A DNA stretch of 12,601 bases, taken from contig CANTHI010000044.1 in the NCBI GenBank assembly GCA_947653505.1, forward strand, positions 1-12,601, given 5' to 3'. Below are positions 130 to 12,601 of this stretch, one piece after another (position 1 is the first letter of the stretch; the number at the start of each line of letters is the position of its first letter). The translations under genes and the position numbers were made by a program. Under the pieces are notes generated by a model that saw nothing but the letters and a program-made list of their open reading frames with translations, searched no databases and was not told the DNA's origin. This DNA is from an uncultured Eubacterium sp. (GTDB lineage: Bacteria > Bacillota_A > Clostridia > Lachnospirales > Lachnospiraceae).

Positions 130-1437
130 CTACCCAATGCATCTGCTCATTTCCCTGATCAGATCGTAGCCGTCCCAGATAACCCCTATCGCAAGGGAAC
201 TGCCAAACTCCACAATCCGGTCTATGCCTCTTAAGCCGCAGTCTGTCACCCACTGCAGGATCTGCTCCCGGTCCAGCCCGTAATACATACAGCTTTGCAC
301 GTTCCCGTTGATATATGGCGTCAGGTCGCGGATATCTGTAAGATCCGTCTGAAAAAACAGACCAAATTTTCCGCGCAGCTGTGTCATATTCTTTGGGATT
401 TTGGGCAGTGAAATAAGATACAGCAGATTATCATACCGTTCCGTTTTCATATCTGCCTGCATACACGACAGCATAACCGCATATTTACACAGCAAAACAT
501 ACTTATCGCACACTTTAATGTCCGCAAGATCATATTTCTGCGCGCAGACAGATACCGCATCCCAGAACTTTTTCTTTGCCAGCTCTCTTTGCCTGCCGGT
601 ACTTCCCAGCCAGCAGATCATATGCGGCGTAGAGCATGCGTTCTGGTCATTCAGATAGGTATCGTTGTAAAACTGTCCGGCCAGTCTGGCGAGTTCTGCT
701 TTGTCCGCTTTCAGAACCGCGTCTGCATCGATTATGCCAAACGAATACCGGTCCGCAAACGCCAGCTCTACGCAACGGACAGGCGGCGGGGATTTGCGGA
801 TCTGGCAGATCGTCTGGTCTCCTCCCCAGATCACGCGGACATCTGACTGTTGTGAAAAATAATCTGTCAGTGTCTGATCATGTCCGAAACGCAGGATGGC
901 TGTCCGCTTTCTGACTTCAGAAAACGGATCTGTCTGTAATAGTCTTTGCATGGCCTCACAGATCAGCTCTGCCTGCCTGTGCCGTTTTTGCGAAACGCGG
1001 ACAATATTTGCGTTTCCTGCAAGCAGTCCAAATACATACGTAAACGCAAAATTTACCGGAATATTTGACGGCGCGATATGAAACGCCAGCCCTCTGCCAA
1101 TACGGGTCTGCCTGTCAGGATCCGCACAGGTTCCGGTATATTGCTCTTTCAGGCGCATGATATTTGATCTTCTGCAGTAAAACGCAAAGGACTGCACGTC
1201 CGGATATTTTCTGCACGCAGGATCTGTGCGGAGCGCTTCTGATAAGGCAAAGAGAAATTCACATACGGTATCCTCAAAGATCCTGAGCGGCATTTTGCTC
1301 AGTACTGGCGCCCCGGCCAGATGTTCCACAGGCAGATCTGCAAGAGAAATCTCTGCAGGGGAAATCTCTGCCGTCCCGTATCCCGTATGTGCGTCTGTTC
1401 CGTGATCTGTGCATACACCATATCTGTTATCCCTCAT
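130..1437 (-). CDS. LuxC-like acyl-CoA/acyl-protein reductase
   Basis: Fatty-acid-reductase (LuxC) family protein of 435 aa, near the usual family length. LuxC enzymes are aldehyde-dehydrogenase relatives that accept an acyl group on a cysteine and reduce it with NADPH to an aldehyde. The expected active-site cysteine is seen as C268 in NDQNACSTP. The conserved IAPSNIPVNFAFTYVFGLLAGN stretch near residues 121-142 is also present. The start has an upstream AGGGGGTG, and the gene overlaps the end of the luxE-like gene by 11 nt, so the two are translationally linked. The LuxE and ACP partners beside it imply the substrate is an activated acid made by this operon. There are no luxAB luciferase genes in the window, so light production is not implied. 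The first 40 or so residues are poorly conserved-looking and contain a short repeat (AEISP, AEISL). The true substrate is unknown. Confidence 0.88.
   Translation of the reverse strand: MRDNRYGVCTDHGTDAHTGYGTAEISPAEISLADLPVEHLAGAPVLSKMPLRIFEDTVCEFLFALSEALRTDPACRKYPDVQSFAFYCRRSNIMRLKEQYTGTCADPDRQTRIGRGLAFHIAPSNIPVNFAFTYVFGLLAGNANIVRVSQKRHRQAELICEAMQRLLQTDPFSEVRKRTAILRFGHDQTLTDYFSQQSDVRVIWGGDQTICQIRKSPPPVRCVELAFADRYSFGIIDADAVLKADKAELARLAGQFYNDTYLNDQNACSTPHMICWLGSTGRQRELAKKKFWDAVSVCAQKYDLADIKVCDKYVLLCKYAVMLSCMQADMKTERYDNLLYLISLPKIPKNMTQLRGKFGLFFQTDLTDIRDLTPYINGNVQSCMYYGLDREQILQWVTDCGLRGIDRIVEFGSSLAIGVIWDGYDLIREMSRCIG
1337..1373 (-). repeat. 15-bp in-frame tandem repeat in luxC 5' end
   Basis: Two 15-nt copies lie at 1337-1351 and 1352-1366 (13 of 15 bases match), followed by a partial third. 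The period is five codons, and the repeat encodes AEISP then AEISL in the N-terminal extension of the LuxC-like protein. Copy-number change would keep the frame. Confidence 0.6.
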
Positions 1438-2503
1438 AAGTATCGCTGCACCCCCTGATCTCTGCCTGTCTGACTCTGCCTGTGATTTTAAAATATTTTC
1501 CTTTCCGCCCGCATGGACAGTCGTCCTCTCCGAGAATCAGCCCTTCGTCCTCGGTCAGCAGGACATGTCCGGGATAGCTGGATGGCAGGATGGATACCAG
1601 TTCTGCCAGCCCTTTCTGACCTGTGGGCTGTATGGAAAAGTCTTCTGCCCTGCGGATAATAATGTCAGAATAATTGGAACAGTGAAAGTGTCCGTATTCA
1701 CATTCCATAAATATGGACCCAAGCTGTTCGGCCATCCCATACTGGTTATGAATGCTGACATTGCCAAATGCCTCCCGTACCTGTGCCCTGAATGCGTCCG
1801 CGTCAACGGCCTGTGCTTCCAGCTTTTTCCATCCTCCTGTGTGGAACAGGATTGCACGGTTCAGCGGCATCCGGACTGCCTGTTTTTTCATTTCACACAG
1901 CACATATTTCCAGATCATAAACGTATAGCCAAACATCAGGATCGTTTCATCCTGATGCTTTGTCATATACGCCTGCATACCTGCCTGATCCAGCTCCATG
2001 TTTTCATTTAAGGCATAAAAAATATCCCTTCCATAAATAGAAAACCCTGTAATGCCTGCCCCGCGTGCCGCGTACATCTTACGGTCTTTTTTCACGGATT
2101 TTGTGTCCAGTATGATCATTGGCAGCCTTGTTTTTCCTATAAACGATGCGATCAGACCTGCCAGTACCGCGGACTGCGCCCTGATATTGTCACTGTCCAG
2201 AAATATCTTTGATACGCTTCCTCCGGTTCCTGAAGATGTCATGACTTTGCGGATCGTATCCGGGGGAACACTAAGCAGCTCAAACTCCTTGAACAGCCGT
2301 ACCGGAACAGGCAGAATGTCGTAATAAGACCGCAGGTTTTCAATATCCATATTCAGATATTTTACGATTGCGTGATACTGCTTACAGTTTGTATCATGAT
2401 GGCGTGTCAGGGCGATCAGCTTTTCTGACAGCATGGCTTCTTTTTCGGCCTTTTCCATAGAATATGGATCCTGTAAAAGCATTTGTTCCAAATCTGGTTT
2501 CAT
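1427..2503 (-). CDS. LuxE-like acyl-protein synthetase
   Basis: Acyl-protein synthetase (LuxE) family, 358 aa, full family length. LuxE proteins use ATP to form an acyl-adenylate, move the acyl group to a cysteine near their own C-terminus and pass it to the LuxC cysteine. Visible signatures are a nucleotide loop TSSGTGG (89-95), HTGGWKK (221-227), YGMAEQ (255-260, like the adenylate-forming family) and the C-terminal CPCGRKGKYFKITGRV block (329-344). C352 in RGCSD is a good candidate for the acylated cysteine. The ribosome site AAAAGGAG lies just upstream of the start and is fused to the last copy of a 10-bp repeat array. It sits between the ACP and LuxC-like genes, forming an acid-to-aldehyde module. 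The acid is not identifiable from sequence; a fatty acid, hydroxy acid or sugar-linked acid are all possible. Confidence 0.9.
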   Translation of the reverse strand: MKPDLEQMLLQDPYSMEKAEKEAMLSEKLIALTRHHDTNCKQYHAIVKYLNMDIENLRSYYDILPVPVRLFKEFELLSVPPDTIRKVMTSSGTGGSVSKIFLDSDNIRAQSAVLAGLIASFIGKTRLPMIILDTKSVKKDRKMYAARGAGITGFSIYGRDIFYALNENMELDQAGMQAYMTKHQDETILMFGYTFMIWKYVLCEMKKQAVRMPLNRAILFHTGGWKKLEAQAVDADAFRAQVREAFGNVSIHNQYGMAEQLGSIFMECEYGHFHCSNYSDIIIRRAEDFSIQPTGQKGLAELVSILPSSYPGHVLLTEDEGLILGEDDCPCGRKGKYFKITGRVRQAEIRGCSDTYEG

Positions 2504-2572
2504 CCGGCTCTCCTTTTGATATCTTTTGATATTTTTTGATATCTTTTTATATTTTTTGATGCCGTTTGATGT
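2504..2572 (-). repeat. 10-bp tandem repeat spacer before luxE
   Basis: The whole spacer between ACP and luxE-like genes is built of 10-bp units on exact register. Six units lie at 2511-2570, with plus-strand consensus ATYTTTTGAT and the outer units diverged. On the coding strand each carries an A-tract of three to six A, and the array ends in the luxE ribosome site (AAAAGGAG). A-tracts repeated at about the helical pitch are known to bend DNA. As RNA, the leader would be A-rich and largely unstructured. Confidence 0.8.
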
Positions 2573-2815
2573 TCAGACAAGATCCACACCGTATTTTTTT
2601 AAGATTCCGATTCCCTTTTCGTACGAGTTAAACTGAATGATATCGTCGGTTTCCAGCATCAGATCAAAAGCTTCTTCGATACAGACGACCAGTCCCATAT
2701 GTCCTACCGAATCCCATTCGGGGATTCCTTCATACACCAGTTTTTCCAGCCCTTCGGTGCTCTCCAGTTCCAGCCCCTCGGCAAAAGCATTTTTGTATTT
2801 TTCTAAATCTGTCAT
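2573..2815 (-). CDS. Acyl carrier protein
   Basis: Small acidic protein of 80 aa, the normal length for an acyl or peptidyl carrier protein. The phosphopantetheine attachment serine is S36 in EWDSVGHMGL, the expected W-D-S context, followed by a helix with conserved hydrophobics (VVCIEEAF). It would carry an acyl group as a thioester on a phosphopantetheine arm added by a holo-ACP synthase encoded elsewhere. It is not part of a fatty-acid synthesis cluster; its neighbours are LuxE-like, LuxC-like and transketolase genes. It is therefore probably a dedicated carrier for the acid activated here. Unlike most genes of the operon it does not overlap its neighbours. It has its own strong ribosome site (GAGGAG, about 7 nt before ATG) after an A-rich leader, which suggests separate and higher translation. 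Confidence 0.9.
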   Translation of the reverse strand: MTDLEKYKNAFAEGLELESTEGLEKLVYEGIPEWDSVGHMGLVVCIEEAFDLMLETDDIIQFNSYEKGIGILKKYGVDLV

Positions 2816-2914
2816 GTTTATCTCCTCGGTGTTTCTTATATGCGTTTTTATTCCGCCTTTTTTATTTTCCCTTTTTTATTTTCCCTTTTTATGCAACGGA
2901 TACCGCAGGCTGCC
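2816..2914 (-). repeat. A-rich spacer with 14-bp tandem repeats before ACP
   Basis: Spacer of 99 nt between the transketolase C subunit and the ACP. On the coding strand it holds about three units of roughly 14 nt, each an A5-6 tract, then GGG or GGCGG, then A-rich and ending in T (about 2850-2893). A good ribosome site, GAGGAG, follows before the ACP start. A small GCAGG/CCTGC hairpin can form across the transketolase stop codon, but no T-run follows, so it does not look like a terminator. Confidence 0.65.
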
Positions 2915-3877
2915 TTACCTGCAGAAATGGTTCTGAATGCAGGAAACAATCCCTTCCCTGTTCAGTCCATACTGTCCTAAAATATAATCCCTGGAGCCTG
3001 TCTTTTTATATTCGTCTGTAATGCCCATACGTACCAGCGGCGGTGTATGGGAAAAAGCTGACATATGCTCTGCCACCGCGCCTCCCAGTCCGCCCAGAAT
3101 GCTGTGTTCTTCTACCGTTACGAGCAGACGGTATTTCTGATAAGACTCTTTTAGCAGCTGCGTATCAAGCGGTTTGATCGTATGCATATTGTATACCGCG
3201 CAGGAAATCCCCTGCGCTCTTAATGCTTCTGCCGCGTCCAGGCAATCCTTCACCAAAAGCCCGGACGCAAACAAAGCCACGTCTTCTCCGTCCCGTAACA
3301 GGGACGCCTTTCCGATTCTGAAATCATAATCATCCTGATAAATAACCGGAACATCCCGGTTTCCGGTCAGACGGATATAGACCGGACCGTCATATTCTGC
3401 AGCGGCCAGTGTCATTTTGACTACTTCGGTACAGTCTGCCGGCACAAGGATCGTCAGGTTTGGAATCGCCCTTAAAAACGCCAGATCCTCTGTGGACCAG
3501 TGCGAGATACCGCTCTTGCCTGTACAGACGCCCGCGGACATGCCAACCAGTTTTACGTTGCATTTTAAGTACCCAAGGTTATGGCGGATCTGTTCCAATG
3601 CGCGCATCGTCAGAAACGATGCATAGGTAGACGCAAACACGCAGTTTCCTTCCATTGCCATTCCGGATGCCGCGGCGACAAGATTTTGTTCTGCGATCCC
3701 TACGTCATAATAACAGTCCGGATATAATTTTTTAAACTTTCCAAGACCGAGCAGCGTACTGACATCTGCGGTAAAAAAACGGATATCTTCACGCTGTTTC
3801 ATCGCCCTGATAAGGCCGACGCCTCCAAAGGCGGCATTCTGGCCTAATCTGGACCATGCGCCGGATTTTACTTTCAT
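2915..3877 (-). CDS. Transketolase, C-terminal subunit
   Basis: Second half of a two-chain transketolase, 320 aa, carrying the pyrimidine-binding and C-terminal domains. The catalytic glutamate that activates thiamine diphosphate is E63 in DVGIAEQN. The SHWSTEDLAFLR stretch (125-136) and the VPAD element (145-148) are typical of this half. Its ATG overlaps the stop of the N-terminal subunit gene as ATGA, and GGAGGG lies 8 nt upstream, as expected for subunits made in equal amounts. Transketolases move a two-carbon ketol unit from a ketose phosphate to an aldehyde. Split transketolases occur widely in bacteria and archaea, including in polysaccharide and natural-product clusters. The aldehyde-forming LuxE/LuxC genes just downstream suggest the acceptor may be made by this operon; that is inference. 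A role in ordinary pentose phosphate metabolism is less likely in this setting. Confidence 0.9.
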   Translation of the reverse strand: MKVKSGAWSRLGQNAAFGGVGLIRAMKQREDIRFFTADVSTLLGLGKFKKLYPDCYYDVGIAEQNLVAAASGMAMEGNCVFASTYASFLTMRALEQIRHNLGYLKCNVKLVGMSAGVCTGKSGISHWSTEDLAFLRAIPNLTILVPADCTEVVKMTLAAAEYDGPVYIRLTGNRDVPVIYQDDYDFRIGKASLLRDGEDVALFASGLLVKDCLDAAEALRAQGISCAVYNMHTIKPLDTQLLKESYQKYRLLVTVEEHSILGGLGGAVAEHMSAFSHTPPLVRMGITDEYKKTGSRDYILGQYGLNREGIVSCIQNHFCR

Positions 3878-4704
3878 ATTTTACCCTCCAGTTCCGCGAG
3901 CGCCTTTTGATACAATGGTTCTGTTAACACATTCTGGTGCCATTCTGCCTGATGTTCCACAAAAGATATGCCTTTCCCTTTTATAGTATGTGCGATCAGG
4001 ACATTCGGGCGGCTGTCATCCAGACGGTCCAGCGCCTCTGTAAGCGCATGGATCTGATGTCCGTCCGCTTCCTGCACATGCCACCCAAAAGCCTGGAATT
4101 TTTCTCCCAAATCCCCCAGCGCCATGACTTCCTCTACCGTACCGGATAACTGCAGATGATTTCTGTCTACAATGACTACCAGGTTGCCCAGCTGATACTT
4201 CGCCGCGCTCATAACCGCTTCCCATACCATTCCCTCATCACATTCCCCGTCGCCAAGCAGGACGTATACTTTATTGGAACGCTGTCTTTGCTTTGCGTCC
4301 AGCGCCATACCGACTGCTACGGATAACGCCATTCCCAATGTACCTCCGGCGTATTCCAGCCCGAACTCCGGACGTTTCGGATAGCCCATCAGCAGGCCGC
4401 CATTTTCCAAAAACGAATACTGCTCCGTCTCCGTAATCCTTCCCATTTCTCTCATGACAGAATACTGCGTCAGGATACAATGTGCCTTTCCTGCCAGAAA
4501 ACGGTCACGCCGCGGGTCATATGGATCCTGTCTGTTCCAGACCAGATACTTTCCATACAAAACCGTTAAAATCTCCACGCAGGAGAGATTGCCTCCCAGA
4601 TGCGCGCCCGCCGCGCCTGCCGCATATGCCATATGGACAACCGAACGGCGCACCCGGTGCGCCATCTGTTCCAGTTCTTTTTTACTATACTCCCCCAAAT
4701 CCAT
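3874..4704 (-). CDS. Transketolase, N-terminal (ThDP-binding) subunit
   Basis: First half of a split transketolase, 276 aa, complete for this half. It carries the thiamine diphosphate and metal site GDGECDEGMVWE (151-162) followed by N182 in VDRN, the usual GDG-N motif. A histidine near the front (AHLGG, H35) matches the G-H-x-G-G position of the family. The KGKG-SF block (242-248) and a WH pair (255-256) are also in place. With the next gene the pair totals about 596 aa, slightly shorter than single-chain enzymes. The start is a little uncertain. The AGGGAGG ribosome site is only 2 nt from the ATG used here, whereas a TTG two codons downstream (4698) would be spaced ideally at 8 nt. The gene follows the second SDR by 7 nt and is ATGA-coupled to the C subunit. 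Confidence 0.9.
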   Translation of the reverse strand: MDLGEYSKKELEQMAHRVRRSVVHMAYAAGAAGAHLGGNLSCVEILTVLYGKYLVWNRQDPYDPRRDRFLAGKAHCILTQYSVMREMGRITETEQYSFLENGGLLMGYPKRPEFGLEYAGGTLGMALSVAVGMALDAKQRQRSNKVYVLLGDGECDEGMVWEAVMSAAKYQLGNLVVIVDRNHLQLSGTVEEVMALGDLGEKFQAFGWHVQEADGHQIHALTEALDRLDDSRPNVLIAHTIKGKGISFVEHQAEWHQNVLTEPLYQKALAELEGKI

Positions 4705-4711
4705 AACCTCC

Positions 4712-5449
4712 CTAAATCATACGTCCGCCGTCAATGTTCCACACACTTCCGGTCACATACGAAGACTGGTCCGATGCCAGAAACCAGATCAGTTCTGCCA
4801 CTTCTTCCGGCTTTCCCATACGACGGATACTGTTTGCCTCTATCATCCTGTCCCGTTCCCGCTGCGGCTTGTACATGCCCATAGCCGTATCGATCAGTCC
4901 GGGCGCGACCGCGTTCACACGGATCTGGTAATGCGCCAGTTCCTTTGCGATCGAACGGGAGGCCCACATCAGCGCGGCCTTGCTCGCGCCATATGCCAGA
5001 TATCCTTCCCTGGCCTCAATCCCGCCTACGGACCCGACATTGATAATGACTCCGTGCTTCTGGCGGATCATGCTTCTGGAAATCATCTGTGTTACCGCCA
5101 TCTGCGCGATAAAGTTCACTTCCATCACCTCGCGCAGCTTATCCAAAGATGTCGTCTGCACATTTCCACAAAACGGCATTCCGGCATTATTGATCAGCAC
5201 ATCGACCGGCTTCTTTTCTTTTACGACCTGCCCAAGCGCCCTTCTGATTTCAGTTTCATCCAATAAATTAAAATAAACCGGTCTTAGAAAACCATTCTGC
5301 CCTCCGGCTGTCCATTCTTTTTGCAGAAAGTCTTCAAATTCTTCGTTATATCTGCCCGCGCAGGCCCATATGCTGCAGCCTTTGGATACAAATTTTTTTA
5401 TGACTGCCCGCCCTATGCCGCCGCTTGCTCCTGTCAACAATATATTCAT
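4712..5449 (-). CDS. Short-chain dehydrogenase/reductase (second SDR)
   Basis: Classical SDR of 245 aa, an NAD(P)H-dependent oxidoreductase of hydroxyl or keto groups. The cofactor loop is TGASGGIG (6-13), the NNAG structural motif is at 87-90, and the catalytic set is S140, Y153 and K157 (GSV... YGASK). The C-terminus VTGSVWNIDGG is typical of FabG-like enzymes. An ATG at 5461 would add four residues (MAEN). I prefer 5449 because it gives an ATGA overlap with the upstream stop, as at most junctions here, and puts the Rossmann strand directly at the N-terminus. Translation would then depend on ribosomes finishing the preceding SDR. Its likely job, inferred from context, is to reduce a ketone formed by the transketolase or by the 2,3-dehydratase branch. 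It also resembles FabG, so reduction of a 3-keto acyl-ACP on the operon's carrier is possible. Confidence 0.88.
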   Translation of the reverse strand: MNILLTGASGGIGRAVIKKFVSKGCSIWACAGRYNEEFEDFLQKEWTAGGQNGFLRPVYFNLLDETEIRRALGQVVKEKKPVDVLINNAGMPFCGNVQTTSLDKLREVMEVNFIAQMAVTQMISRSMIRQKHGVIINVGSVGGIEAREGYLAYGASKAALMWASRSIAKELAHYQIRVNAVAPGLIDTAMGMYKPQRERDRMIEANSIRRMGKPEEVAELIWFLASDQSSYVTGSVWNIDGGRMI

Positions 5450-6276
5450 GTTTTCAGCCATCTCTTTTCATAAACATAAGCAACATACCGCGGGGATATC
5501 CTGTACCGGATTTTTATGCTTTGTTTCCCCCCCCCCGCAGCTTCATATCCTCCGTCAACCTTTATAATTTCTCCTGTTATAAAGGCTGCCTGTTCTGACG
5601 CCAGAAAAAGTACCGCGTGAACGACATCTTCTTTTTCACCTGCTTTTTTTAACGCGCTTTTTCCGATAATATCCTGAACCGTTTCCCCGCTTTTGTAGCG
5701 GATCATATCTGTCCGGATCAGTCCCGGCGCGACCGCGTTGACCCGGATGTGAAAAGGCCCCAGCTCCTGCGCAAGAATTTTCGTTGCGAATGCAACCGCT
5801 GATTTTGCCGTGCCATACGCAATCCCTCCCGCTTCCGGCTTTAACCCTCTGACAGAACTGATGTTGATAATATTTCCGCTTTTCTGGCGTATCATCTTTC
5901 TGGCGATCAACTGCGTAAATGACAGCAGTCCAAAAAAATCCACCTGGAACATTTTTTCGATTTCCTGCATGGAGGTCATCAGAAAAAGCCCTGTGCCTGA
6001 GATACCGGCATTGTTTACCAGACAGTCGATCCGGATCTGATCTGAAAGAATGGTTTTCGCCGCCTGTACAATACTTTCTTTATCTTCCAGATCCAGACAG
6101 ACCGTTTTGATCCATACGCCGTATGCATCCGCCATTTCGTACAGTTCTTTTTCCCATCCGGTACTTTGGGTCCGCGCGCATACCCATACGTTGCAGCCTT
6201 CTTTTAGAAGGCCGCGTACGAGTGCGTATCCGATCCCCCGGTTTCCTCCGGTTACTATTACATTCTGTTTACCCAT
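5446..6276 (-). CDS. Short-chain dehydrogenase/reductase with G10 tract (first SDR)
   Basis: Classical SDR, 276 aa from the chosen start. It shows the cofactor loop TGGNRGIG (9-16), NNAG (88-91) and the catalytic S140 or S141, Y154 and K158 (AYGTAK). An upstream ATG at 6297 exists, but the one at 6276 has a strong AGGGAGG ribosome site 5 nt away, so it is chosen; it overlaps the acyltransferase gene by 8 nt. The usual SDR end (VDGGY, 240-244) is followed by an unusual 32-residue basic and aromatic tail. The tail is encoded from a run of ten G onward (5527-5536). Losing one G would end the protein at about 253 aa, close to a normal SDR length. In the present frame the stop forms an ATGA overlap with the next SDR. 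Function is probably a ketone or alcohol interconversion in sugar or acyl-chain building; the substrate is unknown. Confidence 0.88.
   Translation of the reverse strand: MGKQNVIVTGGNRGIGYALVRGLLKEGCNVWVCARTQSTGWEKELYEMADAYGVWIKTVCLDLEDKESIVQAAKTILSDQIRIDCLVNNAGISGTGLFLMTSMQEIEKMFQVDFFGLLSFTQLIARKMIRQKSGNIINISSVRGLKPEAGGIAYGTAKSAVAFATKILAQELGPFHIRVNAVAPGLIRTDMIRYKSGETVQDIIGKSALKKAGEKEDVVHAVLFLASEQAAFITGEIIKVDGGYEAAGGGKQSIKIRYRISPRYVAYVYEKRWLKT
5527..5536 (-). repeat. G10 homopolymer (C10 on plus strand)
   Basis: Ten consecutive C on the plus strand, read as ten G in the first SDR gene. Tracts of this length are prone to slippage in other bacteria. With nine G the frame reaches TAA at 5514-5516; with eleven it reaches TGA at 5468-5470. 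Only the ten-G frame runs to the ATGA junction with the next gene. A sequencing or assembly length error is also possible. Confidence 0.85.
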
Positions 6277-6937
6277 TCCGGCCTCCCTGCTGTGCAAATA
6301 CCAGATGCCTGCTGTTTGCTTTCATCACCCGCGCAGGATTCCCTGCGACCGTCAGATCATCGCAGACATCTTTCATGACGGCGGCCATCATGGCGACTAC
6401 AACCCGGTCTCCCAGGGTAATTCCTTCCCTGATACAGCTGTGTACGCCTAAAAAGCTGCCGCTTCCAATCGTGCAGTGCCCCGCGATAAAACAGCCTCCG
6501 GACACAATCGTATCCCTGCCTACGTTCACATCATGTCCGACCACCGCATGGGACTGCACGAATACATTGTCCTGCAGACGTGCGTTCGATGAAAGGATGG
6601 TATGCATTTTCAGTACGCATCCTTCCCCGATCTGCGCCGTCCCGGCAATCGTACTTGTCGGATGTATCACCGTGGCAAGGCGGTAATGCTTTTCCTTTAC
6701 GCTGTCATGCATTCTGGCCCGGACAGACGGTTCTCCGACCGCAATGACCACCCGTGCGTGACCCGCGTCATACTGCCCGCAAAAGCAGGCAAATGGCAGA
6801 CGTTTTTGTCCCATAAACCCGCCTGCCGGCTGTGTATCATCGATAAATACAGTCTCATCCCAGACCATCCCGGACGTCTGCATCATCTCATACAGCTCCT
6901 GCGCTGTAGCGCCCGCCCCGTATATGCCTAAAACCAT
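6269..6937 (-). CDS. PglD/NeuD-like sugar acyltransferase (left-handed beta-helix)
   Basis: Sugar O- or N-acyltransferase, 222 aa, typical length for PglD/NeuD-like proteins. An N-terminal small Rossmann-like domain starts GIYGAGATAQEL (4-15). From about residue 90 come hexapeptide repeats of a left-handed beta-helix (IAGTAQIGEGCVL, VGHDVNVGRDTIV, IAGHCTIGSGSFLG). The H130-x4-H135 arrangement in SHAVVGHD fits the catalytic histidine region of PglD. The C-terminus AGNPARVMK is the usual end. Family members transfer an acetyl group, sometimes a longer acyl group, from a coenzyme A thioester to the amine of a nucleotide-linked amino sugar. With the aminotransferase in the same operon, N-acylation of the new amino sugar is the natural reading. 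It follows the glycosyltransferase by 3 nt, with AAGGAG upstream. Whether it could use an acyl group from the operon's ACP is open. Confidence 0.85.
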   Translation of the reverse strand: MVLGIYGAGATAQELYEMMQTSGMVWDETVFIDDTQPAGGFMGQKRLPFACFCGQYDAGHARVVIAVGEPSVRARMHDSVKEKHYRLATVIHPTSTIAGTAQIGEGCVLKMHTILSSNARLQDNVFVQSHAVVGHDVNVGRDTIVSGGCFIAGHCTIGSGSFLGVHSCIREGITLGDRVVVAMMAAVMKDVCDDLTVAGNPARVMKANSRHLVFAQQGGRNG

Positions 6938-6940
6938 CGT

Positions 6941-7873
6941 CTATATCTCCTTCTGCTGTATTTTTTTTATAATATAGCGCGGCCGCCGTTTGGCCAGCTC
7001 AAAATCCCGCCATACATATTCTCCGACGATCCCGGCCGCACCCAGTATCATCCCGCTAAAAAAACAGCTGCCGGAAAGCAGAATGCCGGGCCAGAGGATG
7101 CTGCCTGTTATCATAGAAAAAACGATACAGCATACCGTTCCCAAAAGTCTGGCCAGCACCATACCTGCCCCTGCGGCTTCCATCCAGCGGACCGGTTTTA
7201 TGGAATACGTTACAAACAGGCCGATTGCCGCGTCTATTTTCCTGCGATAGCTCCAGCCGGACTTTCCTTTTTCCCTTCTGCTTCTCTGGTAAGGCAGACA
7301 GCAGTGATCATATCCCATCCATAACAGCAGCATCTGCGTAGAACCATTGGGCGCGTCTATCTGGCAGAACTGCCTCGCCACGCACCTGTCCAAAAGATAC
7401 ATATCAAACCCGCCTTTGGGATAATCCGCGTTTACGATTTTTCTTACCAGCATATAAAATATACCGGAACATACGGCGCTTACAAAGCCGTCTTCCCGTC
7501 CCTCCCTTGCCGCGATGACAAGCGGATATCCTTCTTCCCATTTTTTTAACATTTCCACAAACAGCTCCGGCGGATCCTGCAGGTCACACGAAATCACGCC
7601 GATCACATCCCCGTCCGCCATTTCCATCCCGCACCGTACCGCCGCGCCCTGTCCAAAATTTCTCGTAAAACAGGCAATCCGCAAAATATCCGGATACTGT
7701 TCCTGAAACTGTTCCATGATCCCATAAGAGCGGTCTTTGGAACCGTCGCACACCATAATGATCTCTGCCGTATATCCGGAAAACAGATGCAGATGGCTGA
7801 CAAGATATAAAATAGTATCTGCTATATTTGCTTCATTGTTATATACCGGAATTACGATCGAAAATTTTTTCAT
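6941..7873 (-). CDS. Polyprenyl-phosphate glycosyltransferase, GtrB/CsbB-like (GT2)
   Basis: Family 2 glycosyltransferase of 310 aa with a GT-A domain and two C-terminal membrane helices (about 232-256 and 261-285), the GtrB/CsbB/ArnC layout. It begins FSIVIPVYNNEANI. Donor and metal site residues are seen in VCDGSKD (41-47) and CDLQDPPE (96-103), and the REKGKSGWS loop (200-208) and GIVGEYVWR-KRRPRYI tail are typical. Such enzymes move a sugar from a nucleotide donor to undecaprenyl phosphate on the inner face of the membrane. The ATG overlaps the stop of the YfhO-like gene as ATGA, with a GGGGTG ribosome site. In Bacillus subtilis and Staphylococcus aureus, CsbB makes the lipid-linked sugar that YfhO uses to decorate lipoteichoic acid, so this pair looks like the same kind of module. 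The sugar may be the special one made by the neighbours; this is inference. Confidence 0.88.
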   Translation of the reverse strand: MKKFSIVIPVYNNEANIADTILYLVSHLHLFSGYTAEIIMVCDGSKDRSYGIMEQFQEQYPDILRIACFTRNFGQGAAVRCGMEMADGDVIGVISCDLQDPPELFVEMLKKWEEGYPLVIAAREGREDGFVSAVCSGIFYMLVRKIVNADYPKGGFDMYLLDRCVARQFCQIDAPNGSTQMLLLWMGYDHCCLPYQRSRREKGKSGWSYRRKIDAAIGLFVTYSIKPVRWMEAAGAGMVLARLLGTVCCIVFSMITGSILWPGILLSGSCFFSGMILGAAGIVGEYVWRDFELAKRRPRYIIKKIQQKEI

Positions 7874-10662
7874 GGCACACCCCTTTTTCTTTTCCTGCTA
7901 CCACCGGCCAGAACAACCGGAAGCGCTCCTGTTCCATGAAATACAATACATATCGTAAATACAATGGATATAAGCGCTCCTGCTTTTAACCCGGGCGTCT
8001 CATAATGCAGCCTCACGCAGTGTTCCCCTTCCGTTAATTCCAGCCCCATATATCTGCCATTCACCACTCGGATCTCACATGCTTCCCCATCCACATAAGC
8101 TTTCCAGCCTTTCAGATATGGCACCGCGATACATAAGATCTTTTTTTCCTCAAGGCGGACGCATCCGCGGATGGTATTTCCCTTTACCGCAATCTCTGAA
8201 ACATCTGCCTGCAGCGCTTTTACCTGCGCGGCATACGGATCCATCGGCTGGACAATGACCGAAAGACCGGAAAACCGGAAGGTTCCATTGTTCCGAAAAC
8301 AGAGCGTCACAACATCCTGCCCGCCTTCCACATATCCCAGATTTATCAGATAATCGTTTACTCCTTTATAATACTGCTGCCCTTTTCCCAATATGTATGC
8401 GGTCTTTGATATCCCGTCCATACCTGCGCGGATCACCCCGAAATGACCGGATACAGAACGGACGTCCTTTAGATAAGACCGGATCCCCGGCCCGTCTGAC
8501 AGATAATCCGCAAGGGCGATATCCTCATATGCGGCATCCTCCAGTCTGATATACAGCTCTCCTGAACTATGCTCCGGCAGCCGGATGCGGACGGTTGTCT
8601 GTCCTTTCTCTACCCTGACCGCACCGTGATCCGGATCACACTGTTTTCCTATCTGCCGCTGCATCCGGCGGAATACTTCCTGATGGCTGGCAACTACAGA
8701 ATCACAAAATACCGGTCTGCAGGCGGGGACAAAGCTGCTGTCCGTAACCGCTCCCTGCAGCATCGCCTGTTCTTTTTCATTCACGGACAGCTGGTCATAT
8801 ACATCTTTTGGAATGACCTGCCCATAAGCGTAAAACAACGGCAGCGCGTTTTTATTTTCATAAATCAGATGGTTTCCGCTTTTTTTCACTTTCTCAAAGC
8901 CATAAGGAACATATCTGTTTTTTTTATCGCCCGCGGTCAGATATTTTACGCAGGAGAGCGTATCCAGCGCCGTCCTCTGGTCATATGAAGATATGGCAAA
9001 ATCGTTGAACCGCTGGCTGACGCCCAGTTCTTTTACCGTGCGCAGCAGATCTGCCGGTGCATAGCTAAAATACGTCGAGATGCCGTTACAATGATTCCGC
9101 AGTCCATAATTACGATTTAAATACGGCGCCAGCGCATTCCCTTCCACGGCATCTGTCCGGTATACGCTCTCATCCTGTATGTCTTTAACGGCATCTGCCG
9201 CGTTTTCTTTTGTCAGCTGTTCCAGTTCTCCGGCGTCCAGATATTGTCCGATAATATTTTCTTCATTTAAATTGTAAAAAGAATAGGCATTCACGCCGAT
9301 TTCCAATATAAATACAAAGCCAAATATCCATTTTCCCCATACTGACGCGCAAATACGATACTTCATTTCCAGATATGCCAGCATCAGATAAAGAAACAGA
9401 AAGCTGACAAAATATACTCCCGTGCCAAACAGAAAGTGCAGACAGAGACATAAAATCACATAAACCTGAACGACCAGATACAGTCTGACAAACGTACTGC
9501 CATCCATCTTTTTTATGGAAGGAAATTCAAACGCCACAACCAGCGCCCCGCCAAAGGCCAGTACAAAAAACCAGCGGTTGGTCACAGCCGCCATACCATT
9601 TGCCAGAGCCGCTCCGGCCGGAAAGCAGCAAAGAACCAGTCCGGCCAGACCTGCTATCTGAAACTGCCGCTGCCTGTGACCGCCTTTTTCCACACACAGC
9701 TTCATAACGAGCAGCAGGGCAAGCGCCGAGACCAGACAGTACCCATACTCTCCTACCGATTCGATGCCGGATACGCTTGTAAACAGCGTAATATAATATT
9801 TCAGGTCATAAAAAAGCGGGATTGTCCGTCCGGATACGTCTCCTGTCCTGCCGCTTTCCAATACAAGAAGCAGGTTTGGCAGCAGGGAAAATCCTGCCAG
9901 TCCCAGTCCGCACAGATAAGCTGACGCAAACTTTCCCAGCAGGCGCAGGCAATGTCTGACACTCCTGTCCGGATCCGTGTAAAAAAACCGGATCAGCACA
10001 TACATCCCGCAAAAAAGCGAAAGCATATACAGCAGGTAAAAATAACTGACCGCCAGATAGCACACCGTCGTTAAAAATAAAGCCGGACTTTCTTTTCTTA
10101 ACAGCTTCTCCGCGCCTGCCAGTAAGAGCGGAAAGCATACCGAAGCCTCAATAAAAAAAGCATGCTTAAACGCATAGCATAAAATATATCCGGAATAAAC
10201 GTACAAAAGGCTGGCAAACAGCATGGCGTCGTCTTTTTCCTTCCATTTCCCGCAAAAACAGGTAAACGACATGCCGGAAGCATACATACTCACAAACAGC
10301 CGGAACCAGAAAAAAGACTCCAGATTCTCACGTTTCCAGAATAAACTAATGAGATAAAGCGGCCGGAAGCTGAATACGGTCAGAAAATCACTTCCCTCTC
10401 CAAGCTTCATATCCCACATGGGAATTTCAAAGTTTCCGCTTTTCAGATTCGAAAGCAGCTGTTCTGCCCACATTTTTAAATATAACAGCGCCGGATAATG
10501 CTGTGTAAACCCGTCCGTTCTCCAGATGACGGTCTTTCCTTTCGCAAAAAAGGAAAAAAATGCCGTGCCAAATAACAAAAGAAAGAAAACCGAATACCGG
10601 AAATAGTAGGATTGTATATATTTACGGATTCTCTCTGTCCTGAAAGCGGTTATCATCTTCAT
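7870..10662 (-). CDS. YfhO-family membrane glycosyltransferase
   Basis: Large polytopic membrane protein of 930 aa, of the YfhO family (GT-C-like). After a short basic N-terminus a first membrane helix (YSVFFLLLFGTAFFSFFA) leads to the family's first outside loop, with WRTDGFTQHYPALLYLKMW carrying the acidic residue expected for catalysis. Many further hydrophobic helices fill the first half. A long hydrophilic outer domain follows in the second half, and a last helix (LISIVFTICIVFHGTGALPVVL) ends before a basic tail. An upstream ATG at 10680 is possible. I chose 10662 because it forms an ATGA overlap with the aminotransferase stop and has AAAGG about 9 nt upstream. Known YfhO proteins take a sugar from an undecaprenyl-phosphate carrier and add it to a teichoic acid outside the cell. 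The adjacent GtrB/CsbB-like gene supports that role. The acceptor polymer is unknown. Confidence 0.85.
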   Translation of the reverse strand: MKMITAFRTERIRKYIQSYYFRYSVFFLLLFGTAFFSFFAKGKTVIWRTDGFTQHYPALLYLKMWAEQLLSNLKSGNFEIPMWDMKLGEGSDFLTVFSFRPLYLISLFWKRENLESFFWFRLFVSMYASGMSFTCFCGKWKEKDDAMLFASLLYVYSGYILCYAFKHAFFIEASVCFPLLLAGAEKLLRKESPALFLTTVCYLAVSYFYLLYMLSLFCGMYVLIRFFYTDPDRSVRHCLRLLGKFASAYLCGLGLAGFSLLPNLLLVLESGRTGDVSGRTIPLFYDLKYYITLFTSVSGIESVGEYGYCLVSALALLLVMKLCVEKGGHRQRQFQIAGLAGLVLCCFPAGAALANGMAAVTNRWFFVLAFGGALVVAFEFPSIKKMDGSTFVRLYLVVQVYVILCLCLHFLFGTGVYFVSFLFLYLMLAYLEMKYRICASVWGKWIFGFVFILEIGVNAYSFYNLNEENIIGQYLDAGELEQLTKENAADAVKDIQDESVYRTDAVEGNALAPYLNRNYGLRNHCNGISTYFSYAPADLLRTVKELGVSQRFNDFAISSYDQRTALDTLSCVKYLTAGDKKNRYVPYGFEKVKKSGNHLIYENKNALPLFYAYGQVIPKDVYDQLSVNEKEQAMLQGAVTDSSFVPACRPVFCDSVVASHQEVFRRMQRQIGKQCDPDHGAVRVEKGQTTVRIRLPEHSSGELYIRLEDAAYEDIALADYLSDGPGIRSYLKDVRSVSGHFGVIRAGMDGISKTAYILGKGQQYYKGVNDYLINLGYVEGGQDVVTLCFRNNGTFRFSGLSVIVQPMDPYAAQVKALQADVSEIAVKGNTIRGCVRLEEKKILCIAVPYLKGWKAYVDGEACEIRVVNGRYMGLELTEGEHCVRLHYETPGLKAGALISIVFTICIVFHGTGALPVVLAGGSRKRKRGVP

Positions 10663-11795
10663 ACGCGGCTGCCTTTGCATAATTTTTCGCAGATCAGGTC
10701 ACAGATCCTGTCCACGTCTTTGATTTCCAGGTCCGGATAGCACGGCAGTGTCAGAACCCGCCGCGAAATATACGAGGCAACCGGCACGTGCGCCTTAAGC
10801 CCCTTCCGGATACAGCATGCAAACTCACTGCATAAAGGATAAAAATATCTTCTTGCAAAAATATGATGTTTTTCCAGATACGCCTGAATCTCATCCCTGG
10901 AAATCCCTGTTTTTTCATGTTCAAAAACGACCGGAACATATGCATAATTAGACACGACCCCCTCCTGAACCGGACACAGGCGGATTCCCGCAATCCCGTC
11001 CAGACGCATACGGTATCTGTCTGCGACAAGCTTTCTTTTTTTTATGTAAGTTTTTACATGCGCCAGATTGCATAAACCCATAGCCGCGTGCATTTCCGTC
11101 ATCTTCGCGTTCGTTCCGGTATACGGCGTCTCATCGGTATGGAGTATCTGGCCAAACTGTTTCAGGCCATTTAAATACGGTATTTTATCCGCGTATGCAT
11201 CAGAAAAAGTAAGACAGCCGCCCTCAACCGTATGGAAGACTTTTGTCGCATGGAAGCTGAACATGGACATATCACCAAGCGCCGCCACGCTTCTGCCCTT
11301 ATATACTTCTCCAAACGCATGCGCCGCGTCATAAATCACGCGCAGATGATAGCGGTCCGCGATACTCCGGATTCTGTCTGCGTCACACAGATTTCCATAC
11401 ACATGCACCGGCAGAATCGCGCTCGTTTTGTCTGTAATCAGCGCTTCGATTTTGTCACAGTCTATCGTATAATCGTATGCATTGATATCGCAAAATACAG
11501 GCGTCAGCCCGTTTCTTAAGACTGCCTGCACAGTCGAGCCAAACGTAAACGGGGTTGTAATCACTTCCCCGCTTAATCCCAGCGCTTCGATTCCAAGCTC
11601 CAGCGCCAGATGCCCGTTTGCAAACAAGCTCACATGATCTGCTTCCATAAATTTTTCCAGCTCCGACTGCAGCCTGACATGCTTGGGCCCCGTATGCGTC
11701 AGAATGCCCGTTTCCCACATATCGCAAATCTCGCGGACATATTCCTCCAGTGGCGGCAGGGAGGGCTTTACCACATATACTGGTTTTTCTTCCAT
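10659..11795 (-). CDS. DegT/DnrJ/EryC1/StrS family sugar aminotransferase
   Basis: Pyridoxal-phosphate-dependent aminotransferase of 378 aa, standard length. The Schiff-base lysine is K185 in SFHATKVFHTVEGG. The aspartate contacting the cofactor ring is D156 in IYDAAHAFG, and the early loop FANGHLALELGIEAL (58-72) is typical of the family. These enzymes put an amino group on a keto-sugar nucleotide, usually at C3 or C4, with glutamate or glutamine as donor. Position cannot be told from sequence alone. A 2,3-dehydratase directly upstream gives a 3-keto-2-deoxy sugar in known pathways (such as EvaA then EvaB), which favours C3. The FHATK motif also occurs in C4 enzymes. Its start follows a perfectly duplicated ribosome site, and its stop overlaps the YfhO-like start. 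Confidence 0.9.
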   Translation of the reverse strand: MEEKPVYVVKPSLPPLEEYVREICDMWETGILTHTGPKHVRLQSELEKFMEADHVSLFANGHLALELGIEALGLSGEVITTPFTFGSTVQAVLRNGLTPVFCDINAYDYTIDCDKIEALITDKTSAILPVHVYGNLCDADRIRSIADRYHLRVIYDAAHAFGEVYKGRSVAALGDMSMFSFHATKVFHTVEGGCLTFSDAYADKIPYLNGLKQFGQILHTDETPYTGTNAKMTEMHAAMGLCNLAHVKTYIKKRKLVADRYRMRLDGIAGIRLCPVQEGVVSNYAYVPVVFEHEKTGISRDEIQAYLEKHHIFARRYFYPLCSEFACCIRKGLKAHVPVASYISRRVLTLPCYPDLEIKDVDRICDLICEKLCKGSRV

Positions 11796-11821: not shown

Positions 11822-12601
11822 TCAGATCTGCAGTAAGGACAGCAGATTTCTCAGCTGGATATTTACACAATTATTAAACTGAATCATCTGATTGACTGTC
11901 GCATAATCAATCCAGAAATACCCTTCCGGTATTTCCCTGATTTCAGAGCAGTCTTTCAGATCAATAATTACGTTCCGGTTCTGCTCATGATAAAATCTCC
12001 CGCCTTCTTCTGACAGGACGATATCATGACGGATCCCTTCCTGTTTTTCCAGCTTTGTAAAAAACAGCTTTTCGATTTCGTCCATCTCATTTCCCGGATT
12101 TGTCGGTTCCATCTGGACCACCGGGCCAAGCTCCGCGCTGTCAAAGCATCCCATCTCCGGGCAGACCCGCACGAGAAATTTTCGCACGCCGTCCATCACA
12201 CAGGTAAAAATTCCAAAAACAGCCATTCCGTTCGCTTCGATTAAAGGCTGTTCCCAATACTTTACCTCCCGCCCTTCGATTTCTATAAAACAGTAGATGA
12301 CCTTAAAATCATAAGGCGTTTTACATACAATTTCTGTCGGCGTCATTTTCCATCCCTTAAGACTCTTGATCGGAACCAGACGGAACGTCTGCTTATGATA
12401 CATTTTATAGTCATTCATCACGCGGAAAATACGGTGTATTTCCCCACGGTCTACGCTTTTAAACATGGAATTGTACAACGCTTTGTCCCGGAACAGCCCG
12501 CCCGCCTGCTCCAGCTCATGTTCCTGTAAGGCTGCTTTTGCAAACGGAATACAGGAAAGCACGGTCCGGGTATCCATATTTACAAGGTTTTTGATCTTCA
12601 T
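11822..12601 (-). CDS. NDP-hexose 2,3-dehydratase-like protein (single repeat; may extend past edge)
   Basis: Resembles the NDP-hexose 2,3-dehydratase family (EvaA, TylX3, SpnO). These enzymes remove water from a dTDP-4-keto-6-deoxyhexose to give a 3-keto-2,6-dideoxy sugar. Family signatures in order are WEQPL (116-120), LVRVCPEMGCFDSAELGPVVQ (143-163, the E-x-G...E-L-x-P-x-V-Q block), EEGGRFYHEQNR (198-209) and FNNCVNIQLRNLLS (242-255), the usual C-terminal end. Known enzymes have two such repeats in about 450-480 aa, but here only one is visible in 259 aa. The first ATG falls exactly on the window edge, so its ribosome site cannot be checked and the gene may begin outside with another repeat. 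Alternatively it is a genuine one-repeat version that works as a dimer. It heads the visible operon, 26 nt before the aminotransferase. Confidence 0.75.
   Translation of the reverse strand: MKIKNLVNMDTRTVLSCIPFAKAALQEHELEQAGGLFRDKALYNSMFKSVDRGEIHRIFRVMNDYKMYHKQTFRLVPIKSLKGWKMTPTEIVCKTPYDFKVIYCFIEIEGREVKYWEQPLIEANGMAVFGIFTCVMDGVRKFLVRVCPEMGCFDSAELGPVVQMEPTNPGNEMDEIEKLFFTKLEKQEGIRHDIVLSEEGGRFYHEQNRNVIIDLKDCSEIREIPEGYFWIDYATVNQMIQFNNCVNIQLRNLLSLLQI

What the first reader, a model, noticed from the sequence alone, without database searches (positions are those of the whole stretch)
130..4704. Split transketolase next to an ACP/LuxE/LuxC acid-to-aldehyde module: candidate chain-extension pathway for a surface sugar
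Seen: ThDP transketolase halves, an ACP with its attachment serine, a LuxE-like synthetase and a LuxC-like reductase with its catalytic cysteine, in one operon with sugar genes and no luciferase genes. Known: LuxE activates an acid and LuxC reduces the acyl group to an aldehyde; transketolase adds a two-carbon ketol to an aldehyde. Inference: the aldehyde made by LuxC is the acceptor for the transketolase, and the ketose-like product is reduced by an SDR, building an unusual side chain or branched sugar. I know of no characterised pathway with this combination.
Basis: partly seen in the sequence, partly recalled or inferred. Interest (0 to 1): 0.75.

Follow-up and report, generated by a model that had tools for sequence, protein, structure and literature searches.

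The report
Transketolase–LuxE/LuxC cassette for surface sugars
A bacterial surface-sugar operon carries a recurring set of genes that probably turns an acid into an aldehyde and then lengthens it by two carbons, a route to unusual sugar side chains for which I found no description.

Summary

The grouping is not chance. In three taxon samples (453 genomes) this transketolase type occurs in 30 genomes, 28 of them with LuxC; LuxC occurs without it in 25 of 53.

In 53 of 53 non-identical transketolase pairs from LuxC genomes the catalytic Glu and His remain but Arg91, His461 and Asp469 (E. coli numbering, acceptor/phosphate site) are gone. This is not unique: 12 of 22 pairs taken as unlinked lack Arg91 and Asp469 too.

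I read the window as a variant in which a ketol transferase and SDRs act on the aldehyde. Acid, donor and product are unknown. Main rival: a two-carbon-branched sugar, with LuxE/LuxC working separately.

The parts
130..1437 (-). LuxC-type acyl-thioester reductase (435 aa), catalytic Cys268 in DQNACSTP
   Evidence: PF05893 3.7e-26; 7xc6_A profile match 2.6e-06; Cys268 in 91 of 91 aligned sequences. NCBIfam luminous LuxC model far below cut-off, 39.7 vs 750 bits
1427..2503 (-). LuxE-type ATP-dependent acyl-protein synthetase (358 aa), acyl-accepting Cys352 in RGCSD
   Evidence: PF04443 5.3e-48; 7xc6_E match 1.3e-12 with the C-terminal GCS aligned; Cys352 in 86 of 87. NCBIfam luminous LuxE model 62 vs 550 bits, not met
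2573..2815 (-). dedicated acyl carrier protein (80 aa), attachment Ser36 in WDSVGHM
   Evidence: Ser36 in 80 of 80 aligned sequences; 17 of 37 aligned members hit PF00550, not the window's own; model pLDDT 95 with ACP fold
2915..3877 (-). split transketolase C half (pyrimidine + C-terminal domains, 320 aa); Glu63 (Ec E411) and His126 (Ec H473) kept; His461, Asp469 and Ser385 equivalents are Ser114, Ser122 and Leu42; Arg358 equivalent is Asn14
   Evidence: residue mapping against E. coli TktA
3874..4704 (-). split transketolase N half (ThDP domain, 276 aa); His35, His75, Asp152, Asn182, His256 kept; Arg91 equivalent is Leu99, His100 equivalent is Tyr108
   Evidence: mapping
4712..5461 (-). SDR-family reductase next to the transketolase; candidate ketone reductase
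   Evidence: PF13561 3.1e-49; SDR close to TKC in 25 of 32 related loci
5446..6276 (-). second SDR-family reductase (overlaps the next gene)
   Evidence: PF13561 7.6e-54
6269..6937 (-). NeuD/PglD-type hexapeptide acyltransferase; candidate transferase of the finished acyl group to an amino sugar
   Evidence: TIGR03570 165.5 bits, above its cut-off of 160.8
6941..7873 (-). GT2 glycosyltransferase
   Evidence: PF00535 2.2e-23
7870..10680 (-). YfhO-family membrane protein
   Evidence: PF09586 4.5e-88
10659..11795 (-). DegT/DnrJ/EryC1 sugar aminotransferase
   Evidence: PF01041 4.7e-87
11822..12601 (-). NDP-hexose 2,3-dehydratase, cut by the window end
   Evidence: PF03559 3.3e-56

Best explanation
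An acyl-group (side-chain) cassette inside a surface-glycan operon. LuxE activates a carboxylic acid with ATP and passes it to LuxC, which reduces it to an aldehyde. The split transketolase, a paralogue specialised for this aldehyde, adds a two-carbon ketol unit from a ketose or hydroxypyruvate-like donor, and an SDR reduces the new ketone. The product is most likely carried on the dedicated ACP by a second carboxyl group and transferred by the NeuD/PglD-type acyltransferase to the amino group made by the DegT aminotransferase. It is thus a tetronate-type pathway in which the aldehyde is chain-extended rather than only reduced. Shown by sequence: genes, catalytic residues, operon layout, dependence of this transketolase type on LuxC, changed recognition site. 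Inferred: that the LuxC aldehyde is the acceptor, the direction, the donor, the second activation and the final attachment.
For: (1) Co-occurrence: TK-type in 7 of 250, 8 of 52 and 15 of 151 genomes; LuxC in 14, 11 and 28; both in 6, 7 and 15 (Fisher in 68). 26 of these 28 have both on one contig. Of the 2 exceptions, G335 is a 3.9-kb contig with LuxE on it (L117), and G052 is a deviant transketolase with an SDR but no LuxE, LuxC, ACP or ligase in the 19 kb read (L114). (2) Asymmetry: LuxC without TK-type in 25 of 53 LuxC genomes; TK-type in 2 of 400 genomes without LuxC. (3) 10 other LuxC loci carry an acetolactate-synthase-like ThDP enzyme instead; 0 of 80 loci have both (p 0.0009; 0.006 in the 39 loci with nearly full flanks). 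(4) 53 of 53 non-identical TK pairs from LuxC genomes keep Glu411 and His473 but none has Arg91, His461 or Asp469; in E. coli TK D469T breaks the Arg91 salt bridge and lets in aromatic aldehydes that the wild type rejects, and Ser385 contacts phosphate (PMC5073344 passages). The phosphate role of His461 is recalled. (5) Distance correlations: TKC-TKN 0.74, SDR-TKC 0.53, LuxC-LuxE 0.80, ACP-LuxC 0.55, TKC-LuxC 0.41 (27-31 loci). (6) ACP in 36 of 38 and an AMP-ligase in 35 of 38 TK loci. (7) A PglD-type acyltransferase plus a dedicated ACP is the proposed R-group route in Flavobacterium psychrophilum (PMC6519341 passages).
Against: The window lacks the AMP-ligase found in 35 of 38 TK loci, so how its ACP is charged is open (the window is cut and its genome is not held). 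Loss of Arg91 and Asp469 is not specific: 12 of 22 pairs taken as unlinked lack both. The LuxC-linked transketolases group on one side of a branch only with support 35, so one origin is not shown. DegT lies in 10 of 38 TK loci (15 of 42 other LuxC loci), and one of three acyltransferase clusters in 19 of 38 (14 of 42 others): no clear excess. Distance correlations can reflect species kinship. Co-occurrence does not prove substrate flow, and related genomes are not independent.
Confidence: 0.45

Rival explanations
1. Two-carbon-branched sugar: the split ThDP enzyme transfers a C2 unit to the keto group of an NDP-4-keto (deoxy)sugar and the SDR reduces it (as in yersiniose or avilamycin/paulomycin octoses). 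LuxE/LuxC/ACP make a separate acyl decoration.
For: The operon has an NDP-hexose 2,3-dehydratase and SDRs. Known or proposed octose routes use either a two-protein complex (AviB1/AviB2, Pau11/Pau12) or a single TPP flavoprotein (YerE) (PMC4753412 passages), the same two architectures seen beside LuxE/LuxC (split TK or ALS-like).
Against: The transketolase type is nearly confined to LuxC genomes (28 of 30). The one nucleotide-sugar epimerase/dehydratase cluster that I counted lies in 8 of 38 TK loci against 9 of 42 other LuxC loci, no enrichment. The enzyme is transketolase-like rather than E1-like: best family PRK05899 transketolase, 237 and 233 bits for the halves, E1 models at most 68.
Confidence: 0.25
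2. Reverse flow: the transketolase provides a two-carbon (glycoloyl or hydroxyacetyl) unit to the ACP, as in glycoloyl-ACP starter formation of some antibiotics (recalled), and LuxE/LuxC act on that ACP-bound unit.
For: ACP lies directly between TKC and LuxE in the window, and SDR-TKN-TKC-ACP or ACP-SDR-TKN-TKC runs recur.
Against: No E2/lipoyl or oxidase partner among the window's operon genes; LuxE activates free acids in the luminous system; LuxC occurs without the TK-type in 25 of 53 genomes, so LuxC does not depend on a TK product.
Confidence: 0.1
3. Plain tetronate-like or lipo-sugar cassette: LuxE/LuxC/ACP make the acyl group alone, and the transketolase only supplies a precursor (for example an unusual ketose), being co-inherited in glycan islands.
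For: 42 of 80 LuxC loci show no transketolase in the fetched flanks; flagellin island papers read ACP/FabG/ligase/LuxE/LuxC as lipid decoration.
Against: Only 2 of 400 LuxC-free genomes in the three samples have a TK-type hit; His461 (phosphate contact, recalled) is lost in 53 of 53.
Confidence: 0.15

Closest known systems
Vibrio cholerae O1 tetronate module (VC0248-VC0252; WbeL, LuxE-like RfbN)
   Same: A LuxE-type protein within an O-antigen cluster that N-acylates an amino sugar with a small hydroxy acid. WbeL is 471 aa with a putative ATP-binding domain; the AMP-ligase cluster here has median 477 aa, in 68 of 80 LuxC loci. That WbeL is a ligase, and the roles of the other genes (ACP, dehydrogenase, LuxE/LuxC, transferase), are recalled from Morona 1995, which I did not read.
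   Different: No transketolase there, the aldehyde being only reduced (recalled). The window has separate luxE and luxC genes, a ketol transferase and SDRs, and no ligase inside the window.
Flagellin glycosylation islands of Aeromonas (group II) and Enterobacteriaceae
   Same: ACP, 3-oxoacyl-ACP reductase, AMP-dependent synthetase or CoA ligase, LuxE and LuxC together beside sugar genes (PMC7874193, PMC4875605, passages).
   Different: The word transketolase does not occur in either main text; function there is conjectured as a lipo-sugar.
Luminescence fatty-acid reductase LuxC-LuxE (7xc6)
   Same: Both window proteins match the chains of the solved complex with catalytic cysteines aligned.
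   Different: Far below the NCBIfam cut-offs for luminous LuxC/LuxE; no luciferase gene seen.
Split transketolase of Carboxydothermus hydrogenoformans (6yak)
   Same: Two-chain transketolase, closest solved relatives of both halves; accepts bulky aldehydes with hydroxypyruvate as donor (PMC7661550 passages).
   Different: It keeps the His/Asp of THAG...GEDG; the window has MSAG...GKSG, Leu for Arg91 and Tyr for His100.
Octose/yersiniose ThDP branching enzymes (AviB1/B2, YerE)
   Same: C2 transfer followed by ketoreduction in glycan or antibiotic sugars (PMC4753412 passages).
   Different: The C2 unit goes on C-4 of a sugar (pyruvate as proposed donor for AviB1/B2); no LuxE/LuxC mentioned in the passages.

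Membership tests
Transketolase family (split, two-chain) | ThDP domain and Pyr+C domains with catalytic Glu and Mg/ThDP ligands | tested here: met
   Pfam matches; Glu63, His126, Asp152, Asn182, His35/75/256 present
Pentose-phosphate transketolase (housekeeping type) | Arg91-Asp469 pair and His461 of the acceptor/phosphate site | tested here: not met
   Leu99, Ser122, Ser114 in the window; 0 of 53 TK pairs from LuxC genomes have any of the three; 10 of 22 pairs taken as unlinked have Arg91 and Asp469
LuxE acyl-protein synthetase (Pfam family) | PF04443 with the C-terminal acyl-accepting Cys | tested here: met
   164 bits vs cut-off 24.9; Cys352 aligned with 7xc6_E
LuxC acyl reductase (Pfam family) | PF05893 with the catalytic Cys | tested here: met
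   92 bits vs cut-off 21; Cys268
Luminescence LuxC/LuxE equivalogs | NCBIfam equivalog cut-offs; luciferase genes nearby | tested here: not met
   39.7 vs 750 and 62.1 vs 550 bits; no luciferase among the operon genes
Acyl carrier protein | ACP fold with phosphopantetheine Ser | tested here: met
   Fold, Ser36 80 of 80; the window protein itself has no PF00550 hit
Tetronate-type acyl-group module | ACP + AMP-ligase + LuxE/LuxC + acyltransferase beside an amino-sugar pathway (make-up partly recalled) | tested here: inconclusive
   All but the AMP-ligase are in the window; ligase in 35 of 38 related TK loci
Tetronate-type acyl-group module | Makes a small hydroxy acid (3-deoxy-glycero-tetronate) and attaches it to an amino sugar | not testable with these tools
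   No chemistry available
Octose/yersiniose C2 branching system | C2 transfer to an NDP-4-keto sugar | not testable with these tools
   Needs enzyme assay; no enrichment of the one nucleotide-sugar dehydratase cluster counted beside the TK

The most novel reading that the evidence does not exclude
A previously undescribed, phylum-crossing chain-homologation unit for surface glycans: carboxylate, LuxE/LuxC aldehyde, ThDP ketol transfer (+2 C), SDR reduction. Some loci carry two sets (L076: two TK pairs and two LuxE/LuxC pairs; L026: two LuxE/LuxC pairs, one TK pair and a second TKN at the contig end), so two rounds of extension may occur: an alternative to fatty-acid or polyketide chemistry for building polyhydroxylated side chains.
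Probability: 0.25. Interest if true: 0.85.

Novelty: new variant of a known kind. Interest (0 to 1): 0.64.

Why it matters
If right, ThDP carbon-carbon bond formation on an enzymatically made aldehyde is a widespread but unrecognised way to build unusual glycan side chains in gut and environmental bacteria, and it would give a function to many 'acyl-CoA reductase / transketolase family protein' annotations. It also offers natural transketolases that seem already adapted to aldehydes outside the pentose-phosphate set, which protein engineers have had to evolve in the laboratory.

Tried and rejected
Own genome of the window: none held, so genes beyond the window, including a missing AMP-ligase, could not be sought. 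Viral contigs: 15 pattern matches, none confirmed as a LuxC relative. Alcohol dehydrogenase as the aldehyde user in TK-free loci: of 101 unclassified neighbours listed from 17 of 19 chosen loci I scanned 89 from 16 loci (12 dropped: the 8 of L029, whose genome has a TK 28 kb away, and 4 others). No alcohol dehydrogenase was among the 25 commonest of 97 families shown, so its absence is not shown; two HpcH/HpaI aldolases were counted but ten proteins scanned to find them did not include them. A single-origin test of the LuxC-linked transketolases was not conclusive (support 35).

Bit score as general classifier of the TK-type was rejected: one housekeeping-type TK reaches 262 bits (L093; its genome is in none of the three samples). 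Within the samples I drew the line at 261 bits after seeing the gaps (264 to 250, 261 to 208, 268 to 247), so it is post hoc. In the first sample two weak LuxC hits of 16 (G117, G230, E about 1e-11, in frames of over 830 aa) were dropped. R520 could not be aligned with confidence and is not used. The sample centres (G017, G274, G011) came from LuxC loci; the rest of each sample was chosen by the tool. The 22 'unlinked' pairs were fetched as stretches of about 3-4 kb, so LuxC further off on their contigs was not excluded; one such pair (L084) had a LuxC-like hit and was set apart. The 53 pairs leave out identical C-terminal ends and loci with one half only.

Lux lipid reading (fatty aldehyde for light): rejected, no luciferase among the operon genes and luminous equivalog models not met.
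Full report
Observation. Pfam confirms the transketolase halves, LuxE and LuxC. The ACP has no relevant Pfam hit of its own, but 17 of 37 aligned members hit PP-binding, the model folds as an ACP and the attachment serine is in 80 of 80 aligned sequences. Upstream on the same strand lie two SDRs, a NeuD/PglD-type acyltransferase (above the TIGR03570 cut-off), a GT2, a YfhO protein, a DegT aminotransferase and an NDP-hexose 2,3-dehydratase cut by the window end.

Enzyme identity. LuxE and LuxC match the two chains of the solved LuxC-LuxE complex 7xc6, with the LuxE C-terminal cysteine and the LuxC DQxAC cysteine aligned. They belong to the Pfam families but not to the luminous equivalogs. The closest solved relatives of both transketolase halves are the chains of the characterised split transketolase of Carboxydothermus hydrogenoformans, described in PMC7661550 (passages read).

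Recurrence. 38 of 80 hold split-transketolase sequence within the fetched flanks, 36 of them both halves; among 39 loci of at least 21 kb, 21 do. By record titles these 38 include Lachnospiraceae, Selenomonadaceae, Veillonellaceae, Synergistaceae, planctomycetes, Alphaproteobacteria, Helicobacteraceae, a Cytophagaceae, an Elusimicrobia, a SAR324 and a Mailhella record. An AMP-binding ligase (PF00501) is in 35 of 38 and an ACP in 36 of 38. Common orders are SDR-TKN-TKC-ACP-ligase-(GNAT)-LuxE-LuxC, or LuxE-LuxC followed by SDR and TK. L002, a Lachnospiraceae record, has an order like the window's: GT2 and NeuD (weak hits, 78 and 34 bits), a further 131-aa frame, SDR, SDR, TKN, TKC, ACP, then ligase and GNAT, then LuxE, LuxC; the window lacks ligase and GNAT. 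As a separate sign of linkage, at least 12 of the 32 best TKC homologues (P0121-P0152), counted by eye, have a longest contig of exactly the same length as a LuxC homologue among the 120 listed.

Genome-level test. I searched the same samples with the window's TKC and LuxC. Family of G017 (a Lachnospiraceae record): 250 genomes, TK-type 7, LuxC 14, both 6. Family of G274 (a Synergistaceae record): 52, 8, 11, 7. Order of G011 (an Anaerovibrio record): 151, 15, 28, 15. Fisher p 6e-8, 2e-5, 2e-13; these treat genomes as independent, which they are not. In 26 of the 28 shared genomes the two genes share a contig, from about 0.1 kb to 28 kb apart. Of the two TK-type genomes without LuxC, G335 has LuxE on the same 3.9-kb contig (L117), and G052 has a deviant transketolase with an SDR but no LuxE, LuxC, ACP or ligase in the 19 kb read (L114). 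The reverse does not hold: 25 of 53 LuxC genomes lack the TK-type. This asymmetry is what one expects if the transketolase works on a product of LuxC.

Alternative partners. Ten LuxC loci have an acetolactate-synthase-like ThDP enzyme, eight of them with a NeuB-like synthase in the locus; none of the ten has the transketolase (p 0.0009 over 80 loci, 0.006 over 39). Some genomes without a TK in the fetched locus have a TK-type hit elsewhere: for 29 loci that lacked it, 9 genomes had a hit of at least 257 bits, two of them (G002, G018) already known from another locus. 32 of 80 LuxC loci have neither partner in view, some because their contigs are short, so the LuxE/LuxC module may well have other uses.

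Active site. Against E. coli TktA (fetched), 53 non-identical transketolase pairs from genomes with LuxC keep Glu411 and His473 in 53 of 53. None has Arg91, His461 or Asp469. Of 22 pairs taken as unlinked, from these and related genomes, 10 have Arg91 with Asp469; the other 12 lack both, so the loss is shared with other non-canonical transketolases and is not a signature. In E. coli, Asp469 forms a salt bridge with Arg91, D469T lets in aromatic aldehydes the wild type rejects, and Ser385 contacts the substrate phosphate (PMC5073344 passages); the role of His461 in phosphate binding and of Asp469 in binding the acceptor 2-hydroxyl is recalled. Arg358 stays in 46 of 53 and His100 in 42 of 53, but the window has Asn and Tyr there. 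Together this suggests an acceptor other than a phosphorylated 2-hydroxyaldehyde; it does not name it. Distance matrices show two tight blocks (TKN-TKC-SDR; LuxE-LuxC-ACP) with a weaker but significant link between them, that is, two modules that travel together and are sometimes exchanged; species kinship may add to these values.

What it most resembles. In V. cholerae O1 the amino groups of perosamine carry 3-deoxy-L-glycero-tetronate, assigned to VC0248-VC0252; changes in wbeL alter or abolish the O antigen (PMC3441752 passages), and RfbN is noted to contain a LuxE domain (PMC4772473 passage). In F. psychrophilum a dedicated ACP and a PglD homologue are predicted to deliver a dihydroxyhexanoyl group to an amino sugar (PMC6519341 passages). 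Aeromonas and Enterobacteriaceae flagellin islands carry ACP, reductase, ligase, LuxE and LuxC. The window has the same logic (aminotransferase, PglD-type acyltransferase, ACP, LuxE, LuxC) plus a ketol transferase and SDRs. I therefore read it as a variant acyl-group cassette in which the aldehyde is extended by two carbons. Shown: parts, residues, linkage. Inferred: the acid, the donor, the order of steps and the attachment.

Main rival. Two-carbon-branched octoses are made, or proposed to be made, by either a two-protein complex (AviB1/B2) or a single TPP flavoprotein (YerE), followed by ketoreduction (PMC4753412 passages). The same two architectures appear beside LuxE/LuxC, and the window has a 2,3-dehydratase, so a branched sugar with LuxE/LuxC working apart cannot be excluded. 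Against it stand the near-confinement of the transketolase to LuxC genomes and the lack of enrichment of the one nucleotide-sugar dehydratase cluster that I counted (8 of 38 against 9 of 42).

Print. Three full-text searches paired transketolase with LuxE or acyl-protein synthetase (9 of 9, 20 of 27 and 15 of 70 papers listed); none of the listed titles or abstract openings concerns a glycan cluster with both. Most of those papers were not opened, and subscription papers are mostly not held, so this is weak evidence of absence. The other seven searches were on single aspects.

Noticed in passing
L049:3993-5777, and L003, L010, L018, L020, L046, L052, L068, L070, L074: Acetolactate-synthase-like ThDP enzyme, in 8 of 10 loci with a NeuB-like synthase, beside LuxE/LuxC; in none of the 10 together with the split transketolase. 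A second possible aldehyde-using partner.
   Followed up: partly
window 1427-2503 (LuxE) and aligned relatives: Cys268, Cys329 and Cys331 (CPCG motif) are in 87 of 87 aligned LuxE proteins, but the luminous LuxE of 7xc6 has no cysteines at the CPCG place; perhaps a metal site that marks the non-luminous branch.
   Followed up: no
L076 (probably the contig of L122, same length) and L026: Loci with two LuxE/LuxC pairs and two transketolase pairs (L076) or one pair and a second TKN at the contig end (L026); L009 and L015 have two transketolase pairs with one LuxC.
   Followed up: no
L014 (Methanocorpusculaceae record): ACP, ligase, LuxE, LuxC and an SDR in a record titled as an archaeon, without transketolase in the fetched stretch.
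   Followed up: no
15 loci with cluster c13, e.g. L018:3470-4225: A metallo-beta-lactamase-fold hydrolase recurs near ACP/LuxE/LuxC; it might release acyl groups from the ACP, as LuxD does in luminous bacteria (inference).
   Followed up: no
L084 (G002:C10:21600-24400): A further divergent transketolase pair with a weak LuxC-like hit (104 bits), on a contig of the same length as that of L002.
   Followed up: no
TKN column of E. coli Asp155: The metal-binding Asp is Asn in 14 of 53 transketolases from LuxC genomes, Asp in the window.
   Followed up: no
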